The notes below the pieces were generated by a model, which saw nothing but the letters and a program-made list of their open reading frames with translations, made no database searches and was not told the DNA's origin. A stretch of DNA of 35,430 nt. Origin: Candidatus Binatia bacterium. Its GTDB lineage: Bacteria > Desulfobacterota > Binatia > Bin18. Positions within the stretch are counted from its first letter, which is position 1. Each line of letters begins with the position of its first letter. Both the position numbers and the translations under genes were made by a program. The stretch spans positions 1 through 35,430 of the forward strand of contig JAJDZM010000266.1 of NCBI GenBank assembly GCA_022824615.1, read 5' to 3'. Below, in pieces: positions 20,144 to 31,514 of this stretch.

Positions 20144-20944
20144 TTATTCAATACCCAACTCCACCTCGCCTAGCCCGTCCATCGCCAACTGCACCGTATC
20201 GCCCTGACTCACAAACTTGGTTGCCACCACGCTGCCGGTCATGACGACCATACCTTGAGACAAGGTCTTGCCCTGGGTAGCCAGCGTGCTCGCCAGCCAG
20301 GCCAGGGCATCGAGCGGATGGCCCAGCACATCCCGGCCATAACCTTCTCCAACGACCTCGCCGTTGATGCGCATGGTGCCGTGGATGGCTGCCAGGTCGA
20401 GCCGTTGCCAGTCTGTCAGCGGCGAACCCAGGACAATGCCGCCGTTCCAGGCGTTATCCGCGAGCAGGGTCAATATATTGTCGGCGATTTTGGTATAGTC
20501 CGCGTGACGGTCGTCAACCAGTTCAAAGGCCGGCATGACCGCCCCGATTGCCTCGGCCACGCTGTCGCGCGTATAGGGAGCCCGGTCGGCTGGTAAATCA
20601 TGCGCAATCTGCACGGCAATCTCGCACTCGACTCCCAGGCGACCAAAGTCGCTCAGGTGTACCTGCGCCGGCGTATGATGGACGGTTTTTTCCATGATGG
20701 CGGCGGCAATGGGTTCGTCAAAACCGACCATCTTTTGCATCACCGGCGTGGTCAACGCAATTTTATGCCCGACGATAGGACCGTGGGTCTCTGTCAAAAG
20801 TTGTTGAAACGCTGCCTGAATGGCATAGGCGTCTTCAAGAAGGTGCGGGGTATGTGGCTCCGGGATGGGGACAAAGGGTCGGCCGGCCTGGCGTTCGTTC
20901 CATAAAAACCGGGCGGCCTCGTGATACGACTGTGTGTCGGCCAT
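20144..20944 (-). CDS. 2-oxopent-4-enoate hydratase-like protein (FAH superfamily)
   Basis: A 266-residue protein like MhpD/HpcG: GHKIALTTPVMQKMVGFDEPIAAAIME in the first third, the metal-binding GVECEIAVQIA (Glu-x-Glu), then AFELVDDRHADYTKIADNILTLLADNAWNGGIVLG, and NGEVVGEGYGRDVLGHPLDALAWLA. Such enzymes hydrate 2-hydroxypenta-2,4-dienoates or decarboxylate related acids in meta-cleavage pathways with a divalent metal in the cytosol. GGAG precedes the ATG at 20944; the frame extends upstream without a matching sequence. It starts 28 bp after the NtaA-like gene and probably shares its operon. Exact reaction is uncertain. Confidence 0.88.
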   Translation of the reverse strand: MADTQSYHEAARFLWNERQAGRPFVPIPEPHTPHLLEDAYAIQAAFQQLLTETHGPIVGHKIALTTPVMQKMVGFDEPIAAAIMEKTVHHTPAQVHLSDFGRLGVECEIAVQIAHDLPADRAPYTRDSVAEAIGAVMPAFELVDDRHADYTKIADNILTLLADNAWNGGIVLGSPLTDWQRLDLAAIHGTMRINGEVVGEGYGRDVLGHPLDALAWLASTLATQGKTLSQGMVVMTGSVVATKFVSQGDTVQLAMDGLGEVELGIE

Positions 20945-20972
20945 TACGATGTCTCCTCGTCTGCGCCCCACG

Positions 20973-22307
20973 CTATTGAGCCTGAAAAAAGCGATTCTCC
21001 GGACGGGGCAGGCCGAGGTTTTCACGCAGGGTAGCGCCCTCGTATTCGCGCCGGAACAAGCCGCGGCGCTGGAGTTCGGGCACGACTTGATCCACAAAGT
21101 CGTCCAGTCCGCCCGGCAGATAGGGGAACATGACGTTAAAGCCGTCCGACCCTTCGGTCATGAGCCATTCCTCCATGTGGTCGGCGATCATGCTTGGCGT
21201 GCCAGTGAGTTCCAAGGTGCTGAAACTGCCGCCCACATACTGGGCAAGCTGTCTGATGGTCATGTTGTCCTTACGCGCCATATCAACCAGTTTCTGCCGC
21301 CCGGATTGAGTGGCGTTACTTTCCGGTATGTCGGGCAACGGACTGTCCAGGTCATAGCCCGACACGTCATGGCCCAGCAGGACGCAGAGTGTGGCCATGC
21401 CGCTATCCGGGTGGACCAGGCTGTCGAGCTTCGCCTTCTTTGCCCGCGCTTCAGCCAGCGTGTCGCCAATAACAACAAAGGCGCCCGGCAGGATTTTGAG
21501 ACGATCGCGACAGCGCCCGCAGGCCTCCATCCGGCCTTTGACATCTGCATAATAGGACTGGGCGTCCTTCAGATTATTGACCCCGGAAAACACAACCTCG
21601 GCGGTCTCGGCCGCGAGCTGACGACCGGCCTCTGATGCGCCGGCCTGGACGATGACCGGCCAGCCCTGGACGGGCCGGGCGATATTCAGCGGACCACGCA
21701 CGGACAGATGCGGGCCTTTATGGTCGAGCACGTGCAGCTTGTCGGGATCGAAATACACGCCGGCCTCGACATCACGGATAAAGGCATCGTCCGCCCAACT
21801 GTCCCACAGGCCGGTGACCACATCGTAGAACTCGCGCGCCAGACGATAGCGCGCGTCATGTTCCATATGGGCCTCGCGTCCGAAATTTAATGCCTCGTCC
21901 GGGTTGGCCGAGGTCACCACATTCCAGCCGGCCCGCCCGCCGCTGATATGGTCAAGCGAGGCAAACTTCCGCGCCACGTGGTAGGGATCGTTATAGGTGG
22001 TGGAGGCCGTGGCAATCAGACCCAGATGCGTGGTGACCGTGGCCAGCGCGGGGAGGAGGGTGAGCGGATCGAAAGAGGTGACCGTCGCGCTGCGTTTGAG
22101 CGCCGCCATCGGCATATTGAGCACGGCCAGATGATCGGCCATGAAAAAGGCATCGAAGCGCCCACGTTCCAGGGTCTGCACAAAGCGCTGGTAGTGCGCA
22201 AAATTGAAATTGGCATCCGGAAATGCCCCCGGATAGCGCCAGGCCGCAGTATGAATGCTGACTGGGCGCATGAATGCGCCGAGCCGCAGTTGTCGTAAAT
22301 GCGCCAT
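20973..22307 (-). CDS. NtaA/DszA-type FMN-dependent monooxygenase
   Basis: A 444-residue LLM-superfamily protein of the nitrilotriacetate monooxygenase group. Seen: RLGAFMRPVSIHTAAWRYPGAFPD, FDAFFMADHLAVLN, THLGLIATASTTYNDPYHVARKFASLDHISGGRAGWNVVTSANPDEALNFG, AQPVIVQAGAS-like GWPVIVQAGASEAG, and the FNVMFPYLPGGLDDFVD end. These enzymes use FMNH2 supplied by a separate reductase to oxidise C-N, C-S or related bonds; no reductase gene is in the window. A GGAGG is 15 bases upstream, slightly far. Its partner, the hydratase gene, follows by 28 bp. The substrate is unknown. Confidence 0.9.
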   Translation of the reverse strand: MAHLRQLRLGAFMRPVSIHTAAWRYPGAFPDANFNFAHYQRFVQTLERGRFDAFFMADHLAVLNMPMAALKRSATVTSFDPLTLLPALATVTTHLGLIATASTTYNDPYHVARKFASLDHISGGRAGWNVVTSANPDEALNFGREAHMEHDARYRLAREFYDVVTGLWDSWADDAFIRDVEAGVYFDPDKLHVLDHKGPHLSVRGPLNIARPVQGWPVIVQAGASEAGRQLAAETAEVVFSGVNNLKDAQSYYADVKGRMEACGRCRDRLKILPGAFVVIGDTLAEARAKKAKLDSLVHPDSGMATLCVLLGHDVSGYDLDSPLPDIPESNATQSGRQKLVDMARKDNMTIRQLAQYVGGSFSTLELTGTPSMIADHMEEWLMTEGSDGFNVMFPYLPGGLDDFVDQVVPELQRRGLFRREYEGATLRENLGLPRPENRFFQAQ

Positions 22308-22904: not shown

Positions 22905-25739
22905 TTATATCCCAATCCTCTGCCCCGTCAGTCCCGGTTCTCTAGCGAGCAGGGCGCGAACCGGCGCAAGTGAGGGCAATCCGAGAACGGTACACAGGGC
23001 ATCGTCAATGCTGATGCGAACCGGGTCGGCATCCAACTGCGCCAGCGGAGCGAGTGATTGCGAGGCGGCTTCGTCATAGGCGTTGGCAAGCGTTGTGAGT
23101 TGGTCTTGCGTGAGACTCCGTACATCAAGGACCGGCATTGACTCCCAGGCCGGCTGCTTCATCTGCATCCAGGCACTTCGTGTGACCGTTCGTCTACCAA
23201 AATAGAAGAGCAGGCTCAGGGTAGAATTGAGCCATACAAGCAATGCCTTCCGTTGCAGTTCATCCAACTGCGAATCATCGAAAGCCCACCACGTATTGCC
23301 GAGAACCTTTTCCTCAAATCCCACGGCCAAAACTGAGTGGGTGATAGGCCATAATCTCTCGACGAGAAGTATTCGACCCGCACGCTGCCAGAGATGAGAC
23401 CCGTAGTGCAGGCCACGCGGGGAATCCTTCCATTCCAGCAGTTTGCAGTTCGGCGTCTGAGAGATGGTCACCACCTCGTCCGACTTGTGTCCCCAGAAGC
23501 CTGGGAATGGCGTCCAGTCGGATTTTGTGACCTTGAACCCTTCGTGTATCCGCTTCCGGTCCGGGCCGAGCGCGCCGAGATGATTGAGTTGACACAGGGA
23601 AATCGGTGTTTTTTCCGTAGAGCCCGGAATCGAAAGTCTGCCACGCGCCAAGTGCCAGGAAATGCGCAATAACTCCACTTGGGCAAAGAGCGCTCCGAGC
23701 CAGATGTCATCCGGCGACGCGGCAGGGAGCGTCATCAATTCGGCAAGTTTTGCACCTCCCGACATGGCTCCAGTGATGCCAGCCTCTTCAATACCAACAA
23801 CGGAACCAATGTGCTCAGTCGCATTCGCCAAGTGCATGGCCTCATGAATCGAGCGCGGATTACGCCACAGGCTGATACAGGTCGTTCTGCCCGGCCTCTC
23901 GCCGCTGTCGAGCTTGCGGGCGATGAACAACAGTTCGGACAGGTCGGTGTTTTCCGAGAAATTGGGCCGCTCGGCATCATGGCTCGAAACCACGGTTTCC
24001 AGGTGGTAGCGCTCGGCGAGCAGCCTGCGCGTCGGCCCCCAGGCTTCGCCCGAAGCAAGGGCTGCTGGCAGCACGAACGCCAGCCGTCCGCCGACCTCCA
24101 GGTGCTTGTCAGCCAGCGCAACAAAGACGCTGCCCAGCCCAGCGGTCGCGCTTGCCGGCAGGTGCTTGAGCCGCTTCTTGAGGTCTTTTTGCAGGACGCC
24201 GCGTTCATCCGGCAGGGAACCGAAGAGCAGGTTGCCGCCCACGCTCCGCACAAAGGGTGGGTTCATCACGCACAGATGCAACTTGGGCAGGGTGGCGTTC
24301 GTTTCCCGTGACATGGCCACGCCGGTACGGATCGTCTCAATCTGCGAATAGTCGAGCGCCATCTGGGTTTTGAGTTCTCGGCTATCAAGAAAATCCAGGC
24401 TGCCCAGCCGCGCCCGCCCCTGATCGACACCGAGCGGCATGACAAACAGATTCATCCGCACAAAGGCAATATCCGGGGCGAGCAGGGCCAGGGTGGAGGC
24501 GGTCAGGTGCACCGCCGAGGGCAGCACGTCATAGCCGTGCAACATATTCTCCATCAGGGTGCGATGCAGCGTCGAAAGTTCCTGTTGTCCCAGTGGCCGG
24601 TCCGAGGCCGCGCGTGTTCTGATGTACTCGTCGGAAAATGCCTGGGCTGCGGCCATCAGCAGTGTACCGGTTCCGCAGGCCAGATCGGCCACCTTGAAGT
24701 GGGCCAATTCTGCGGGGTCGCCCAAGTCCTGTTTCCACTCTGCCGCCAGGGTCAATTTAAGCAGCAGGGTGGCGGCTGGTACCGAAGTGTAATAGGTGCC
24801 GAGATACTTCGCTTCGTGCAGCAGCCAGTGATAGATGCGCCCCATCAGGTCATGGCGTAAGGCGGCCTGTTGCTCGCAAATGGCTTTGGCTTGTGAGAGC
24901 ACTGCCCTGACGGCCTGCGTAGTGCTGAGCGCACTCGGAAGTTCATCCAGTACGCGCTCACCGAGTTGGAAAATCGGCACATAGTTGATGTTCTCCCATA
25001 TCCAGCGCCAATGCTTGGCAAGAGCACCAACTAGATCGGCTTCCTTCTCAATTTTGCGCAGCGGAGTGATCCGGCCATCCGTTATCGCCAACTGTTCTTG
25101 AAAAATCAGGGCGTTGGCCAGTACCAGGGCCGAGACCTTGGCGGCTGTTTCGCGCCGGCCTTCGGCTTTGTCCGGTGTCTCACCTTTGGGCGGGGTGATG
25201 CCGAGAATTGTTGACAGCCGGTCACACGCGCCTGTTTGGCCCAGCCAGAGTTGTGCAACACTGACCAGGCGGCCATGCAGCGCTTTGGCTGTCCGCTCAA
25301 CGATATCGTCTTGGCTCAGCGCTTCTTGCGCCCGGCGCAGGGCTTCCATCAGCGCCGCAGGATTTCCCTCGAACCATTCGTCCCCCTCGGAGGTCTCGGT
25401 AATAATGCAATAGCGCAGCCGCGCCCCGGTCAGCGCAGTAAGCATCGCGGCGGTAGGTGTCGTGCGAAGTTGCTCGGGATACACCGTTGCGGCGGCAATG
25501 TGGGCAATCCCGGCCCGGACGCGCTTGCGGGCGTCGTCCAAAACGATCTGTTCGGCGTTCGGTACATCGGCAAACTTGCCTTCGATGACTGTACGCAGAC
25601 CACGAAGCTGAAACAGCACATCAGGTCGGTGCTTACCATGCAGGTGAATGGTTTCCGCGTCGGCGGTGACGCCGAGCTTTGAAATCAGCACCGCCAGTTG
25701 TGTATTGACGACTTCTTCACGATTGCGCTGCTTCGGCAT
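22905..25739 (-). CDS. One-piece restriction-modification enzyme (N6-adenine methylase with PD-ExK-like N-terminus)
   Basis: A 944-residue protein. N-terminal P39-D40 and E53-G-K55 in a VLFQLRGLRTVIEGKF segment match a PD-(D/E)xK nuclease core. A helical part follows, then the methylase: motif X GTYYTS (314-319), SAM motif DLACGTGTLL (352-361) and catalytic NPPF (493-496), which marks an N6-adenine enzyme. The C-terminal third (from about 650) should recognise DNA. This arrangement is that of type IIG/IIL single-chain enzymes; type I HsdR/S genes are absent. Start: MPKQRN at 25739 is chosen; the frame continues upstream through a 9-nt repeat (DPIDPIDPTDS) to 25796. The two genes upstream on the same strand are DUF2617-like and TauE, so it may share their operon. 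Phage-defence role is likely. Confidence 0.85.
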   Translation of the reverse strand: MPKQRNREEVVNTQLAVLISKLGVTADAETIHLHGKHRPDVLFQLRGLRTVIEGKFADVPNAEQIVLDDARKRVRAGIAHIAAATVYPEQLRTTPTAAMLTALTGARLRYCIITETSEGDEWFEGNPAALMEALRRAQEALSQDDIVERTAKALHGRLVSVAQLWLGQTGACDRLSTILGITPPKGETPDKAEGRRETAAKVSALVLANALIFQEQLAITDGRITPLRKIEKEADLVGALAKHWRWIWENINYVPIFQLGERVLDELPSALSTTQAVRAVLSQAKAICEQQAALRHDLMGRIYHWLLHEAKYLGTYYTSVPAATLLLKLTLAAEWKQDLGDPAELAHFKVADLACGTGTLLMAAAQAFSDEYIRTRAASDRPLGQQELSTLHRTLMENMLHGYDVLPSAVHLTASTLALLAPDIAFVRMNLFVMPLGVDQGRARLGSLDFLDSRELKTQMALDYSQIETIRTGVAMSRETNATLPKLHLCVMNPPFVRSVGGNLLFGSLPDERGVLQKDLKKRLKHLPASATAGLGSVFVALADKHLEVGGRLAFVLPAALASGEAWGPTRRLLAERYHLETVVSSHDAERPNFSENTDLSELLFIARKLDSGERPGRTTCISLWRNPRSIHEAMHLANATEHIGSVVGIEEAGITGAMSGGAKLAELMTLPAASPDDIWLGALFAQVELLRISWHLARGRLSIPGSTEKTPISLCQLNHLGALGPDRKRIHEGFKVTKSDWTPFPGFWGHKSDEVVTISQTPNCKLLEWKDSPRGLHYGSHLWQRAGRILLVERLWPITHSVLAVGFEEKVLGNTWWAFDDSQLDELQRKALLVWLNSTLSLLFYFGRRTVTRSAWMQMKQPAWESMPVLDVRSLTQDQLTTLANAYDEAASQSLAPLAQLDADPVRISIDDALCTVLGLPSLAPVRALLAREPGLTGQRIGI

Positions 25740-25743
25740 TATG

Positions 25744-25804
25744 GGGTCCGTTGGGTCAATAGAGTCCGTTGGGTCTATGGGGTCAATAGGGTCCATTGGG
25801 TCGG
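25744..25804. repeat. 9-nt minisatellite at the restriction-modification gene start
   Basis: Seven imperfect units of GGGTCNNTN type (for example GGGTCCGTT, GGGTCAATA) run head to tail on the plus strand. On the minus strand they encode D-P-I/D-S-I/D-P-T repeats if translated with the gene. Nine bases keep frame, so copy-number change would only alter N-terminal length or the distance to the ribosome site. Confidence 0.85.
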
Positions 25805-27260: not shown

Positions 27261-27405
27261 CTACCGTTCGGTACCTGAATTATGAGGCGATTGTTGCCTG
27301 TCTCAGTGAGAGCGTCAAGCAGAAGACGCCGGGCCGGACAGATTTCCTTGACCCCTACCGTGTCTCTGCCTATGATCCGAGGACGCTGGCCAAAGGAGGG
27401 CGGAC

Positions 27406-28584
27406 ATGTCTGCGGGGAACCTCAAAGATGTCGCGGCTGTGTGTGGTGTGGGCCATACGGCATACGGTCGAAAAATGAACCGGAGTCAGATCGACCTGGC
27501 CGGTGAAGCCATCAGCAACGCGCTCGATGACGCCGGGCTGGGGCGAGACGATCTGGACGGGCTCATCGTCAGTTTTGGGACGCCGATCGGAGCGGATGCG
27601 GATACCCTGGCCTATGCGTTGGGATTAAAGCTGCGCGCGTATAACCAAACCTGGGCGCACGGACGGTTCACGGCCAGCAGTATACAGTGGGCGGCGATGA
27701 TGGTCAGCGCCGGACTGACCAATGTGGTGGCTTGTATGGCGTCGATCAGCTTCTCCGGTTTCCGTAAACCCATGATGGGCGGGTCTGGAGACGCCGAGGG
27801 GGGGCGGGAGGCCGGCGGCGGGCACGGCGAAGACCCGGTGTTCGGCATGACCTCGCCTGGGGCCGGGGCCGCCCTGGTCGCCCGGAAGTATTTTGATCGC
27901 TTTGGCGCAACGAGCGAGCAGTTGGCTGCGGTGGCGGTGGCGTTTCGGAAGCACGCTGCCATGAATCCGAACGCCATCATGCGGACACCGATCAGCGTCG
28001 AAGACCACCAGAACTCGCGTTTTGTGTGCGAGCCGCTGCACCTGCTGGACTATTGTCTGATTAACGATGGGGCGGCCTGCGTCCTGGTCACCACCCAGGA
28101 GCGCGCGCGGGATATGGCCAAGCGGCCGGTGTGTATTAGCGGTATGCAGGGTCTGCCCGCGGGACGGGAGGAATTTATCTGGACCTATCCCGGTTTTGGG
28201 ACTTCTCAACAAACTGCCTTTGATTATGTGCCCGGCCCGCAGCCCGTGTATGAGATGGCGGATGTATCGCCTAAGTATCTGGATGCGCTGTTTACCTATG
28301 ATGCGTTCTCGATTCTGGCCTGGACCGCGCTGGAGCGCTTCGGGTTCTGTGGGCAGGGTGAAGCCGCGGCATTTACCCAGGATGGGCGTATCGAACTGGG
28401 CGGGGAACTGCCTATGAACACCAACGGCGGGCTGATGTCCGAGGGCCATATCATGGGCTGGAATCATCAGGTCGAGATCGTGCGCCAATTACGGGGGGAG
28501 TGTGGGGAGCGACAGATTCCGAATGCGCAGCTTATCCAGTGGGCCAACGCGTACGGCGACTCGTTAGTCTACCGCGCCGGCTGA
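27406..28584 (+). CDS. Thiolase-fold protein lacking the nucleophilic Cys (Ltp2-/BbsB-like)
   Basis: A 392-residue thiolase-superfamily protein of the SCP2-thiolase branch: VAAVCGVGHTAYGRKM, LDGLIVSFGTP, MTSPGAGAALVARKYFDRFGATSEQLAAVAVAFRKHA, and NTNGGLMSEGHIMGWNHQ with a conserved H. The usual Cys nucleophile site reads RFTASSIQWAA, so that position is Thr89 and not Cys, and the second Cys near the end is replaced in WANAYGDS. This argues against classical thiolysis; Ltp2-type retro-aldolases likewise lack it. AGGAGG precedes the ATG. It is the first gene of a four-gene operon, with a DUF35 protein 15 bp downstream as obligate-looking partner. The substrate acyl-CoA is unknown. Confidence 0.87.
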   Translation: MSAGNLKDVAAVCGVGHTAYGRKMNRSQIDLAGEAISNALDDAGLGRDDLDGLIVSFGTPIGADADTLAYALGLKLRAYNQTWAHGRFTASSIQWAAMMVSAGLTNVVACMASISFSGFRKPMMGGSGDAEGGREAGGGHGEDPVFGMTSPGAGAALVARKYFDRFGATSEQLAAVAVAFRKHAAMNPNAIMRTPISVEDHQNSRFVCEPLHLLDYCLINDGAACVLVTTQERARDMAKRPVCISGMQGLPAGREEFIWTYPGFGTSQQTAFDYVPGPQPVYEMADVSPKYLDALFTYDAFSILAWTALERFGFCGQGEAAAFTQDGRIELGGELPMNTNGGLMSEGHIMGWNHQVEIVRQLRGECGERQIPNAQLIQWANAYGDSLVYRAG

Positions 28585-28599
28585 AAAAAAGGAGAGGGC

Positions 28600-29013
28600 A
28601 TGGCCGAGTATACAAAACCGCTCCCGGCGATTTCGACGCTGAACCAGCCGTACTGGGATGGTTTGAAACAGCGGCAGATGGTGCTGCCCTACTGCGAGGC
28701 GTGTGCCAAGGTCTGGTATCCTCCGGCACCGTTTTGTCCGGACTGCTGGTCGCACGATTTTCGCTGGCAGGCGGTGAGTGGGCGGGGCGTGGTGAACTCC
28801 TGGGTTGTTTTTCATCAAGCCTATTTCTCGTCGTTCAAGGATGACATTCCATACGCTGTGGCCGAGGTCGAGTTGGAAGAAGGCCCCCGTTTGCTGACCA
28901 ATCTGGTCGAAGTCGCGAACGAGGACATTGCCGTCGGCATGTCGGTGGAAGTGGTCTTCGACGATGTGACCGATGAGGTCACCCTGGCAAAATTTCGGCC
29001 CCGGAAAGGGTAA
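28600..29013 (+). CDS. DUF35 zinc-ribbon/OB-fold protein
   Basis: A 137-residue DUF35 protein: the rubredoxin-like zinc knuckle CEAC (about 32-35) with CPDC (about 47-50), then an OB-fold (GRGVVNSWVVFHQAYFSSF, YAVAEVELEEGPRLLTNLVEV, GMSVEVVFDDV). DUF35 proteins bind thiolase-fold enzymes, shape the active site and help bind acyl-CoA, as in Ltp2-ChsH2 and in BbsA with BbsB. AGGAG precedes ATG 28600, 15 bp after the thiolase stop. The protein is cytosolic and probably forms a complex with the upstream gene's product. Confidence 0.9.
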   Translation: MAEYTKPLPAISTLNQPYWDGLKQRQMVLPYCEACAKVWYPPAPFCPDCWSHDFRWQAVSGRGVVNSWVVFHQAYFSSFKDDIPYAVAEVELEEGPRLLTNLVEVANEDIAVGMSVEVVFDDVTDEVTLAKFRPRKG

Positions 29014-29046
29014 ACGGACCGGTACGGCGACACTGAAGGAGGCATT

Positions 29047-30249
29047 ATGCCCGGTATTCTCGACGGTATTCGCGTGTTTGACCTCAGTATCGCCGCGGTC
29101 GGACCCTGGGCGTCCAAATTGCTGGGCGAGCTGGGAGCGGATGTGATCAAGGTGGAGTCGCCCGGCGGTGAACTCTCTCACGTCATCCCGCCGCCGATTA
29201 AGGGTACGGCCGTCCTGTATATCTCGGCCAACTTCAACAAGCGGAATATCGTGCTCGATCTCAAAGAGGAGGGTGATCGGGCCATCGCCCTCAAGCTGGT
29301 TGAAAAGAGCGATGTGTTTGTTCAGAACATGCGGCCGGGCGCGGTCGAGCGTTTGGGTTTGGGCTATGACGTCGTCTCACAGCTCAACCCGCGCCTGGTG
29401 TATGTGTCTGCGTCGGCGTATGGCCGAACCGGTGCGATGGCAAAGGAAGCCGGGATCGATCCGACCGTCCAGGCATTCGGCGGCTGGTGCAGCATTACCG
29501 GTGCTCCAGGTTCTCAGGGGGAGATGTTCCGCCACCTGGCCCATCTCGACATTACGACCAGCACCATGATTGTCGAGGCCGTTTTGCAGGCGCTGCTGGC
29601 GCGGGAGCGCTCGGGCAAGGGGCAGCATATTGAGATTGATATGATCTCGGCCGCGATGTCGCTGCAAACCAGCCGACTGGCTGAATATTTCGCGACCGGC
29701 GAACAACCGCAGCCCATGGGCAGTGCCGCGGCAACGACCGTGCCGCACCAGGCCTTTGTGTGTGAGGATCAGGAATATCTGGCGGTTGGGGTGGTGAGCG
29801 AAGACCAGTGGCCGCGCTTCTGTCGTGCTATCGGCCAAGAGACCCTGTGCGACGATCCGCGCTTTGCGACCAACCCGAAACGGGTCGAAAACCGGTCTGC
29901 CCTCGTAGCCCTGCTTGAAGACCATTTCAAAACCAAGCCAACCCGCTGGTGGAGTCTGCGGCTGACCCAAGCAGGCGTGCCGAACACGCGGGTGGAGCGC
30001 ACGGTCAATTTTCAGACGCTCCGCGCCGACCCCCAAGTCACACGCAATCAACACATTGTTGATCTGGAGACGCCGCATTGGGGCACGCTCAGCGTCGATG
30101 GGCTGCCGTGGAAGTTTGAGAAAAATCCGGCCGGTCCGATTCGTCCGGGCGGACTGCAAGGCGAGCAGACCGAGGAAGTCCTGCGCGAGTTTGGGATAGC
30201 GGCAGAGACGCCGGAGCGGAACGGAAGAGACAAGAGACTGGAGTCGTGA
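29047..30249 (+). CDS. Class III CoA-transferase (CaiB/BaiF), first of a pair
   Basis: A 400-residue CoA-transferase: [37 protein letters not shown] at the N-terminus, NFNKRNIVLDLK, LNPRLVYVSASAYG, and HLAHLDITTSTMIVEAVLQALLARERSG, with D168 in the catalytic Asp place. The fold interlinks two chains. Family members move CoA between carboxylates such as succinate, malate, carnitine or benzylsuccinate. GGAGG lies upstream of ATG 29047. The second gene overlaps by a base, so the pair may form a heterodimer like BbsEF. Third gene of the operon. Confidence 0.9.
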   Translation: MPGILDGIRVFDLSIAAVGPWASKLLGELGADVIKVESPGGELSHVIPPPIKGTAVLYISANFNKRNIVLDLKEEGDRAIALKLVEKSDVFVQNMRPGAVERLGLGYDVVSQLNPRLVYVSASAYGRTGAMAKEAGIDPTVQAFGGWCSITGAPGSQGEMFRHLAHLDITTSTMIVEAVLQALLARERSGKGQHIEIDMISAAMSLQTSRLAEYFATGEQPQPMGSAAATTVPHQAFVCEDQEYLAVGVVSEDQWPRFCRAIGQETLCDDPRFATNPKRVENRSALVALLEDHFKTKPTRWWSLRLTQAGVPNTRVERTVNFQTLRADPQVTRNQHIVDLETPHWGTLSVDGLPWKFEKNPAGPIRPGGLQGEQTEEVLREFGIAAETPERNGRDKRLES

Positions 30250-31451
30250 TGCCCGGCGCGCTTGATGGTTTTACCATTATCGATTTCACCCAAGGGCTGT
30301 GCGGGCCGTTTGCCTCCATGCGTCTGGCTGACGCCGGGGCCGAGGTGATCAAAATCGAGCCGTTGGGCGGCGATACCGCGCGGACCATGGGACCGCCGTT
30401 CATTCAGGACGAAAGCGCGGTCTTCCTGAGTCTCAATCGGAATAAAAAGAGCGTGGCTCTCGATGTCACCACACAAGACGGCCGGAAGATTGCACGACAA
30501 CTGATTGACCGGGCCGATGTTGTGTTGGAGGATTTCGGACCGGGCCGGGCGGAAAAGTTGGGGCTGGGCTACGCAGACCTCAGCCAGACGCATGAGACGC
30601 TGGTGTATTGCGCGATCAGTGCCTTTGGGGAGGAAGGGCCGCTGCGAGACCAGCCAGGGGCGGAGTTGGTGGTGCAGGCCATGGCCGATTACACCCACTC
30701 GCTTGGAAAAATCGGGGAGGCTCCGGTTCGCTTAGGGACGGACGTGGCCAGTCTCAACACCGGCATTATGGCCTCCCAGGCGATAACGGCCGGGCTGTTT
30801 CATCGTGTGCGCAAAGGCGAGGGGCAGCGGGTTACGGTCAGTATGCTGGGGACCCTGCTCCATATGCGTGGCATTATGTGGACGTCCATGACGGACCCGG
30901 ACGAGTGGTATGGCTTCCATCTCGATCATTATACCCGGCCGCCCGACGAGGGCTATAAAACCAAAGACGGTCACGTCTATTTCGGCTTACGCCGGGGCAG
31001 CAGCGAGGATTGGGATCGGCTGATGCTTACGCTGGGCTTGACGGACTATATTACTGATCCGCGTTTTCAGGGCTTTGGACGAGAGGCGACCAGCATTGGC
31101 CGCTATGCGCCCGAGGTTAAGCCGATTTGGGAACGGGCGTTTCAGCAGTTGACGAACGCTGAAGTGGTCAAGCTCGTCCATGAGTTCCACGGGGATGCCG
31201 TGCCCTTTAACGACTACCCCACCTTATGTGCCCATCCACAAGTAGCCGAGCTCGATATCCTGAAAGACGTTGACCACCCGGCGGGGGAGAGTTTTCGGAC
31301 CATTGGGCCGGTCTGGAATTTGGCGGATACGCCGGCAGAAATTAAGTCCCCTCCACCGACTCTCGGCCAGCATACGGACGAGGTTCTCTCCGGGCTGGGA
31401 ATGAACGCGACAGACCTTCAGCGGCTCAGAACGGCCAGGGTCATCAGTTAG
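30249..31451 (+). CDS. Class III CoA-transferase (CaiB/BaiF), second of a pair
   Basis: A 400-residue paralogue of the preceding gene: MPGALDGFTIIDFTQGLCGPFASMRLADAGAEVIKIE, NRNKKSVALDV, VYCAISAFGEEGP and RLGTDVASLNTGIMASQAITAGL, with D165 as the likely nucleophile. It ends with the LGQHTDEVL segment. ATG 30249 shares its first base with the preceding TGA, and GGAG lies seven bases upstream; GTG 30246 is an alternative. Both paralogues keep the Asp, so which does the chemistry is not clear. Last gene of the operon; a terminator-like stem follows within 40 bp. Confidence 0.9.
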   Translation: MPGALDGFTIIDFTQGLCGPFASMRLADAGAEVIKIEPLGGDTARTMGPPFIQDESAVFLSLNRNKKSVALDVTTQDGRKIARQLIDRADVVLEDFGPGRAEKLGLGYADLSQTHETLVYCAISAFGEEGPLRDQPGAELVVQAMADYTHSLGKIGEAPVRLGTDVASLNTGIMASQAITAGLFHRVRKGEGQRVTVSMLGTLLHMRGIMWTSMTDPDEWYGFHLDHYTRPPDEGYKTKDGHVYFGLRRGSSEDWDRLMLTLGLTDYITDPRFQGFGREATSIGRYAPEVKPIWERAFQQLTNAEVVKLVHEFHGDAVPFNDYPTLCAHPQVAELDILKDVDHPAGESFRTIGPVWNLADTPAEIKSPPPTLGQHTDEVLSGLGMNATDLQRLRTARVIS

Positions 31452-31484
31452 TGTAGCGGCCAGTCGAGCGGGGCTAAAGGAAGT

Positions 31485-31514
31485 CCGGGCCAGCCCAAAA
31501 CCGGCCCGGATTTG
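31485..31514. terminator. Bidirectional terminator-like stem between convergent genes
   Basis: TCCGGGCC (31485-31492) pairs with GGCCCGGA (31504-31511) around an 11-base loop, followed by TTT on the plus strand. It lies between the CoA-transferase operon end and the ammonium transporter end. Confidence 0.7.

What the first reader, a model, noticed from the sequence alone, without database searches (positions are those of the whole stretch)
27406..31451. Thiolase-fold/DUF35/two CoA-transferase operon, like part of the bbs pathway but without its other genes
The four genes are tightly packed on the plus strand with strong ribosome sites and gaps of 15, 33 and minus 1 bp. The order thiolase-fold, DUF35, class III CoA-transferase, class III CoA-transferase recalls bbsB, bbsA and bbsE, bbsF of benzylsuccinate degradation, where BbsAB is a thiolase-type pair and BbsEF a two-subunit CoA-transferase. 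No dehydrogenase or hydratase is present, so the CoA transfer would be joined directly to the cleavage step. A new acyl-CoA side-chain or dicarboxylate route is possible.
Basis: partly seen in the sequence, partly recalled or inferred. Interest (0 to 1): 0.75.

Follow-up and report, generated by a model that had tools for sequence, protein, structure and literature searches.

The report
CoA-transferase plus aldolase-type four-gene cassette
A sponge- and soil-associated lineage of uncultured bacteria carries a compact, promoter-driven set of four genes that probably loads coenzyme A onto an unknown acid and then splits its carbon chain with a thiolase look-alike that has lost the thiolase cysteine; it is a new combination of known enzyme types, not the toluene (bbs) pathway.

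Summary
The four genes are real. They have their own conserved promoter, all are under purifying selection, and the order thiolase-fold / DUF35 / CoA-transferase / CoA-transferase is kept across one Binatota family with changing flanks. The thiolase-fold protein is not a BbsB-type thiolase. It lacks the nucleophilic cysteine, carries the YDxF tyrosine of the steroid retro-aldolases Ltp2/Sal, and groups with Ltp2 in the tree. It falls in a fully supported subclade (Binatota, Rhodococcus plasmids, one haloarchaeal plasmid) with HGR and His348 where Ltp2 has its acid Tyr344. The second transferase has lost the catalytic Asp (Ser/Asn) and the first keeps it. BbsE/BbsF show the same asymmetry, but at only 25-28% identity, so the pair looks analogous and not orthologous. 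In more distant relatives the aldolase gene lies near acyl-CoA dehydrogenase, mesaconyl-CoA-hydratase-like MaoC, CitE-like lyase and MmgE/PrpD genes, hinting at (branched) dicarboxylates. Best reading: an activation plus retro-aldol module, new variant of a known kind. Substrate and activity are untested.

The parts
27348..27376 (+). sigma-70-like promoter, TTGACC-17-TATGAT
   Evidence: 10 of 12 consensus matches; the TTGAC(A/C) block is kept upstream of the thiolase-fold gene in all 12 upstream regions aligned, including genomes whose other flanking sequence is unrelated
27406..28584 (+). THL: thiolase-fold, cysteine-less, Ltp2-type aldolase-like protein (HGR, YDAF with Tyr298, His348)
   Evidence: Pfam; best PDB match 6ok1 Ltp2, 1.8e-62; active-site columns and tree
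28600..29013 (+). DUF35 partner (rubredoxin-like zinc ribbon CxxC-x10-CxxC plus OB fold)
   Evidence: Pfam; matches 9myr_B and 6ok1_B, the DUF35 partners of Sal and Ltp2; C4 zinc motif aligned
29047..30249 (+). CT1: class III CoA-transferase with the catalytic Asp (D168)
   Evidence: Pfam 347.6 bits; Asp in all 10 CT1 orthologues aligned
30246..31451 (+). CT2: class III CoA-transferase with the Asp replaced by Ser (S169 in 401-aa numbering; Asn in one relative)
   Evidence: Pfam 307.7 bits; Ser/Asn in all 7 CT2 orthologues aligned; dN/dS about 0.1 or less
31484..31510 (-). terminator-like hairpin between CT2 and the convergent ammonium-transporter-like gene
   Evidence: the scan finds no more such sites than its shuffles, so weak

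Best explanation
The four genes form one transcription unit for an activate-then-cleave module. CT1 and CT2 make a heteromeric class III CoA-transferase in which CT1 supplies the covalent Asp and CT2 is a structural or substrate-binding subunit without it; the transferase moves CoA, most plausibly from succinyl-CoA, onto a carboxylic acid. The THL-DUF35 heteromer then cleaves the resulting 3-hydroxyacyl-CoA by a retro-aldol reaction: Tyr298 as base on the beta-hydroxyl, His348 as the probable acid, giving a ketone or aldehyde (or 2-oxo acid) and a shorter acyl-CoA. Retro-aldol cleavage needs no 3-hydroxyacyl-CoA dehydrogenase and no thiolysis. Shown: genes, promoter sequence, co-conservation, loss of Cys in THL, loss of Asp in CT2, placement with Ltp2-type enzymes. 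Inferred: heteromers, direction, chemistry, CoA donor. The substrate is unknown; a (branched) dicarboxylic hydroxy acid is the best lead.
For: THL falls in a fully supported 12-sequence clade inside the cysteine-less YDxF group that also holds Ltp2 6ok1 (22 rows, 100/99), apart from the Cys/HDxF/GHP thiolases that include BbsB. Ltp2 Tyr294 (base) corresponds to Tyr298 and Ltp2 Tyr344 (acid) to His348 (roles from PMC12329534). DUF35 best matches are the DUF35 partners of Sal and Ltp2. CT1 has Asp in 10/10 and CT2 Ser/Asn in 7/7 sequences. The same asymmetry is seen in BbsF (Asp) / BbsE (Tyr), and in fused double transferases of Variovorax and Paraburkholderia near their own THL-DUF35 genes (N half Tyr, C half Asp). 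Order is conserved in the family with changing flanks, with a conserved promoter. The activating partner is swapped in relatives: another CoA-transferase in a second Binatota family, an AMP-forming ligase on Rhodococcus and haloarchaeal plasmids. Dicarboxylate-type neighbours.
Against: No activity or complex has been shown. His348 in place of Ltp2 Tyr344, and Ala in place of Ltp2 His296 / Sal Cys304, mean that neither known aldolase mechanism is copied exactly. CT2 keeps an Asp two residues before the lost position (TDVAS), so its loss of catalysis rests on the alignment. The ACAD/MaoC genes of the second Binatota family have no orthologue in the window's own family, so the dicarboxylate link is indirect. 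The structure model failed (mean pLDDT 44).
Confidence: 0.6

Rival explanations
1. A bbs-like beta-oxidation end piece: CT1/CT2 activate an alkyl- or aryl-succinate and THL-DUF35 is a thiolase that cleaves the 3-oxoacyl-CoA, with dehydrogenase and hydratase encoded elsewhere.
For: Gene types and the Asp asymmetry recall BbsEF; CT1 scores higher with 9fn0_B (141 against 102 bits) and CT2 with 9fn0_A (116 against 95 bits). The genome has about 50 ACAD-like candidates.
Against: No nucleophilic Cys, YDAF instead of HDAF, no GHP motif, and a tree position away from BbsB. BbsA/BbsB model scores are far below cut-off, and no protein of the genome passes the BbsB model cut-off.
Confidence: 0.1
2. Steroid or hopanoid side-chain removal, as for Ltp2/Sal: THL-DUF35 cleaves a polycyclic 3-hydroxyacyl-CoA and CT1/CT2 recycle CoA between side-chain acids.
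For: Closest solved relatives are steroid aldolases. Related Binatota (order Bin18) are known from sponges (PMC8262859), which are sterol-rich (general knowledge).
Against: No steroid-ring gene was recognised among the neighbours examined; the neighbours of relatives point to C5-dicarboxylate-type enzymes. Steroid catabolic genes were not searched genome-wide, so this is not excluded.
Confidence: 0.15
3. The module runs in the synthetic direction: THL-DUF35 condenses an acyl-CoA with a carbonyl compound (PhlABC- or HMG-CoA-synthase-like) and CT1/CT2 take the CoA off the product.
For: DUF35/thiolase-fold pairs include condensing enzymes such as PhlABC and archaeal HMG-CoA synthase complexes (PMC12329534); aldol reactions are reversible.
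Against: No biosynthetic neighbours; the condensing enzymes named work through a Cys (general knowledge) that is absent here; relatives sit among catabolic-looking genes.
Confidence: 0.12

Closest known systems
Ltp2-ChsH2(DUF35) steroid side-chain retro-aldolase (PDB 6ok1) and CtSal-CtShy(DUF35) (9myr by its YDCY motif; PMC12329534)
   Same: Thiolase fold without Cys, YDxF tyrosine, DUF35 partner; Ltp2 is the best PDB match and lies in the same 22-row group; same C4 zinc motif as the Ltp2 partner
   Different: Different residues at both other catalytic sites (Ala for His/Cys, His for Tyr344); DUF35 is a free protein, not fused to MaoC; partnered with class III CoA-transferases; separate subclade
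BbsEF benzylsuccinate CoA-transferase (PDB 9fn0)
   Same: Two adjacent class III CoA-transferases, one with and one without the catalytic Asp
   Different: 25-28% identity to either subunit; both best match succinate-hydroxymethylglutarate CoA-transferase; not next to bbsGHCD genes
BbsAB benzoylsuccinyl-CoA thiolase (PDB 7pxp)
   Same: Thiolase fold plus DUF35 zinc-ribbon partner
   Different: BbsB has the Cys, HDAF and GHP thiolase residues; THL lacks the Cys and the GHP motif and has YDAF
Variovorax sp. SRS16 plasmid cluster (L120) and Paraburkholderia caribensis cluster (L138)
   Same: BbsE/BbsF-like pair (40% and 45%) and fused double CoA-transferases close to a YDxF thiolase-fold gene plus DUF35
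   Different: The thiolase-fold proteins are 35-39% identical and outside the HGR/His348 subclade; the Variovorax cluster also has hydratase genes
Citrate lyase (CitF CoA-transferase plus CitE citryl lyase)
   Same: Logic: acyl transfer coupled directly to an aldol-type cleavage whose product can serve as the next donor
   Different: Unrelated protein folds; the resemblance is of mechanism only and from general knowledge

Membership tests
BbsAB benzoylsuccinyl-CoA thiolase | NCBIfam equivalog models BbsB (750 bits) and BbsA (250 bits) | tested here: not met
   107 and 36 bits
BbsAB benzoylsuccinyl-CoA thiolase | Cys nucleophile, HDAF and GHP motifs | tested here: not met
   AHGRFTASS, YDAF and SEGHIMG in the same columns
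bbs pathway | bbsG, bbsH, bbsCD next to bbsAB and bbsEF | tested here: not met
   absent from the locus; no BbsB above cut-off in the genome; single pathway genes not searched one by one
Ltp2/Sal-type DUF35-dependent retro-aldolase | Cys-less thiolase fold, YDxF tyrosine, DUF35 partner, common group with Ltp2 | tested here: met
Ltp2/Sal-type DUF35-dependent retro-aldolase | second catalytic residue: Tyr344 (Ltp2) or YDC cysteine (Sal) | tested here: not met
   His348 and Ala300 instead
Ltp2/Sal-type DUF35-dependent retro-aldolase | retro-aldol activity on a 3-hydroxyacyl-CoA; complex with DUF35 | not testable with these tools
   needs purified proteins
Class III (CaiB/BaiF) CoA-transferase | CoA_transf_3 domain | tested here: met
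   347.6 and 307.7 bits against a cut-off of 23.3
Class III (CaiB/BaiF) CoA-transferase | catalytic Asp | tested here: inconclusive
   CT1 met (10/10), CT2 not met (Ser/Asn in 7/7)
BbsEF-type heteromeric CoA-transferase | one Asp-bearing and one Asp-less subunit, encoded side by side | tested here: met
BbsEF-type heteromeric CoA-transferase | orthology with BbsE and BbsF | tested here: not met
   25-28% identity; CT1 and CT2 each closer to SUGCT (31-32%)

The most novel reading that the evidence does not exclude
The four proteins form a self-contained, CoA-recycling lyase: CT1/CT2 take CoA from the short acyl-CoA released by THL-DUF35 and put it on the next hydroxy acid, so that CoA acts only catalytically and the net reaction is hydroxy acid to carbonyl compound plus carboxylic acid, without ATP, redox steps or thiolysis. 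That would be a citrate-lyase-like machine built from a thiolase-fold aldolase and class III CoA-transferases, with a new Tyr/His active site.
Probability: 0.2. Interest if true: 0.75.

Novelty: new variant of a known kind. Interest (0 to 1): 0.5.

Why it matters
It defines a clade of thiolase-fold proteins (HGR, YD[A/P]F, His348) spread over Binatota, Rhodococcus plasmids and a haloarchaeal plasmid, named only 'thiolase family protein' where annotated, that most likely are aldolases with an undescribed second catalytic residue. It adds an independent case of the active/inactive subunit pairing in class III CoA-transferases and ties both to a short cassette that can be expressed and tested whole. 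If the CoA-recycling reading holds, it is a new route for breaking C-C bonds in hydroxy acids, in a phylum described as yet uncultured (PMC8262859).

Tried and rejected
BbsAB identity: rejected on residues, model scores and tree. An upstream reading frame that looked like the tail of a lost gene (FLDPYRVSAYDP...): rejected, because the conserved block is the promoter and the ribosome site. The idea that the ACAD-MaoC operon beside the gene in the second Binatota family completes the pathway here: no orthologue in the window's genus or family at the thresholds used. AlphaFold2 model of THL from 15 sequences: mean pLDDT 44, not used; the second job was not spent, because the sequences allowed gave no deeper alignment. 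Paper searches for this gene combination gave nothing useful.
Full report
OBSERVATION. The four reading frames are present at the stated places: THL 27406-28584, DUF35 28600-29013, CT1 29047-30249, CT2 30246/30249-31451, all on the + strand with gaps of 15, 33 and -1 bp (ATG start) and good ribosome sites. Pfam assigns Thiolase_N/Thiolase_C_1, zf-ChsH2/OB_ChsH2_C, and CoA_transf_3 twice. The unit is bounded by opposite-strand genes (a TauE-type exporter and an ammonium-transporter-like gene, the latter named from its sequence only) in the window's genus. A TTGACC-17-TATGAT promoter lies 30 bases before the first ATG. Its -35 block is conserved in all twelve upstream regions aligned from the family, including L017 and other genera whose sequence further upstream is unrelated. 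All four genes show dN/dS of 0.04-0.14 against four genomes of the genus.

WHERE IT OCCURS. The window belongs to a 4.98-Mb Candidatus Binatota MAG (organism names from record titles of near-identical loci). Within its GTDB family, THL is found in 15 of 15 genomes sampled. The order THL-DUF35-CT1-CT2 is kept wherever contigs are long enough (L013-L017, L029, L078-L080, L094), and is cut by contig ends or split in others (L081, L083-L085, L095). Exceptions: L082 (G256) has THL-DUF35 followed by other genes, and no CT1 was found in that 80%-complete genome; L018 has the four-gene order with a shortened CT1 frame (342 aa). Flanking genes differ between genera, so the four-gene cassette is the conserved unit. 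In a second Binatota family (f5) the pair THL-DUF35 (about 75% and 62-68%) is followed by CT1 (68%; L089, L023), by a different class III CoA-transferase (c14; L086-L088, L090, L092), or by none. In the window's genome, seven other thiolase-like genes have a DUF35 gene beside them, and none of these has a CT1/CT2-like gene within about 6 kb.

THL IS NOT A BBSB-TYPE THIOLASE. Its best solved relative is Ltp2 of Thermomonospora curvata (6ok1, E 1.8e-62), not BbsB (1.9e-29). In aligned columns, BbsB and the true thiolases of the same genome have Cys, an H-D motif (HDxF in most) and GHP, while THL and its relatives have HGR, YDAF and SE[AG]H. A maximum-likelihood tree of 35 sequences puts THL in a 12-row clade (100/100) with a Rhodococcus DK180 plasmid protein (50% identity), an R. 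koreensis plasmid protein (42-43%) and a Natronosalvus halobius plasmid protein (44%). That clade lies inside a 22-row Cys-less group (100/99), nearly all with YDxF, that holds Ltp2; BbsB falls with the Cys-bearing proteins. In Ltp2 the YDHF tyrosine 294 is the base and Tyr344 the acid; in Sal they are Tyr302 and Cys304 (PMC12329534). The equivalents here are Tyr298 and His348, and Ala300 stands at the His296/Cys304 place. This combination matches neither characterised aldolase, so the His348 role is a prediction. The DUF35 protein matches the partners of Sal and Ltp2 and has the C4 zinc motif of the Ltp2 partner, not the C3H1 motif of Shy.

CT1 AND CT2. CT1 keeps the catalytic Asp (D168) in all ten orthologues aligned. 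CT2 has Ser or Asn there in all seven and is still under purifying selection. Sequences read from tool alignments show Asp in BbsF (9fn0_B) and Tyr in BbsE (9fn0_A) (which chain is E and which F is assigned here by the Asp and from general knowledge). Identity of CT1/CT2 to BbsE/BbsF is only 25-28%, and both are nearest to succinate-hydroxymethylglutarate CoA-transferase with NCBIfam scores far under the cut-offs. So the pair resembles BbsEF in design but is not BbsEF. Double transferases fused in one protein in Variovorax SRS16 and Paraburkholderia caribensis, near their own YDxF thiolase-fold/DUF35 genes, have Tyr in the N half and Asp in the C half. Variovorax also has a true BbsE/BbsF-like pair (40% and 45%) directly before its THL-DUF35. 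The association of an Asp-less/Asp-bearing transferase pair with this kind of aldolase has therefore arisen or spread more than once. A caution: CT2 keeps an Asp two residues before the lost one.

WHAT THE RELATIVES SAY ABOUT THE SUBSTRATE. In f5 an opposite-strand group MaoC / acyl-CoA dehydrogenase / MaoC lies beside the gene in several genomes; the MaoC proteins match the two halves of mesaconyl-CoA (2-methylfumaryl-CoA) hydratase and RipB/Ich. L089/L023 also have a CitE/RipC-like lyase. Next to the R. koreensis homologue stand genes for both MaoC halves (54% and 44% to those of f5), a CoA-transferase scoring 471 bits with succinyl-CoA:mesaconate CoA-transferase (cut-off 700), a CitE/RipC-like lyase and MmgE/PrpD. 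In Natronosalvus the neighbour is an acyl-CoA dehydrogenase 54% identical to the f5 one. MmgE/PrpD genes also occur near the DK180 and Natronosalvus homologues. This points to branched dicarboxylate-type acyl-CoAs, but the f5 ACAD and MaoC have no orthologue in the window's own family, so it is a lead and not a result.

MECHANISM. The most economical reading is activation followed by retro-aldol cleavage. The activating partner is CT1-CT2 here, another CoA-transferase in f5, and an AMP-forming ligase in DK180 and Natronosalvus; the aldolase pair is the constant part. Retro-aldol cleavage of a 3-hydroxyacyl-CoA explains why neither 3-hydroxyacyl-CoA dehydrogenase nor thiolysis is needed. Because the product is itself an acyl-CoA and the partner is a transferase, CoA could be recycled inside the cassette as in citrate lyase; this is inference.

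VERDICT. Real, conserved and unusual; a new variant built from known enzyme kinds. The bbs analogy holds for the CoA-transferase design and fails for the thiolase. Substrate, complexes and activity remain to be shown.

Noticed in passing
window 22905-25796 (-): 963-aa DNA methylase-like protein (N6_Mtase, weak PADLOC type I/IIG methyltransferase matches) with a repetitive N terminus (DPIDPIDPTDSIDPTDPI); not found at the same place in L013-L017.
   Followed up: partly
L120:3165-5708 and L138:1622-4301: Fused double class III CoA-transferases whose N half lacks the catalytic Asp (Tyr) and whose C half keeps it, close to thiolase-fold/DUF35 genes in Variovorax and Paraburkholderia.
   Followed up: partly
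L121:4076-9155: Rhodococcus rhodochrous GD02 plasmid operon CaiB-CaiB-MaoC-MaoC-DUF35-Ltp2 (YDHF, Tyr) beside a 3-(3-hydroxyphenyl)propionate hydroxylase-like gene; the second CaiB looks racemase-like.
   Followed up: no
L118:7426-23820: Rhodococcus sp. DK180 plasmid pDK3 cluster with two different thiolase-fold/DUF35 pairs, adenylate-forming ligase, cyclase-family protein, indolepyruvate ferredoxin oxidoreductase and MmgE/PrpD: an uncharacterised catabolic cluster.
   Followed up: no
window 20144-22307 (-): FAA-hydrolase-like and long luciferase-type monooxygenase genes, overlapping, conserved next to the cassette in several genomes of the genus (L013-L016).
   Followed up: no
L018:4529-5557: CT1 frame shortened to 342 aa while CT2 is intact; either a MAG error or a true deletion.
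   Followed up: no
window 1-35430 (genome G000): The genome gives 16 thiolase-like matches, about 60 CoA-transferase III candidates and about 55 acyl-CoA dehydrogenase candidates in 4.98 Mb: a rich set of acyl-CoA enzymes.
   Followed up: partly
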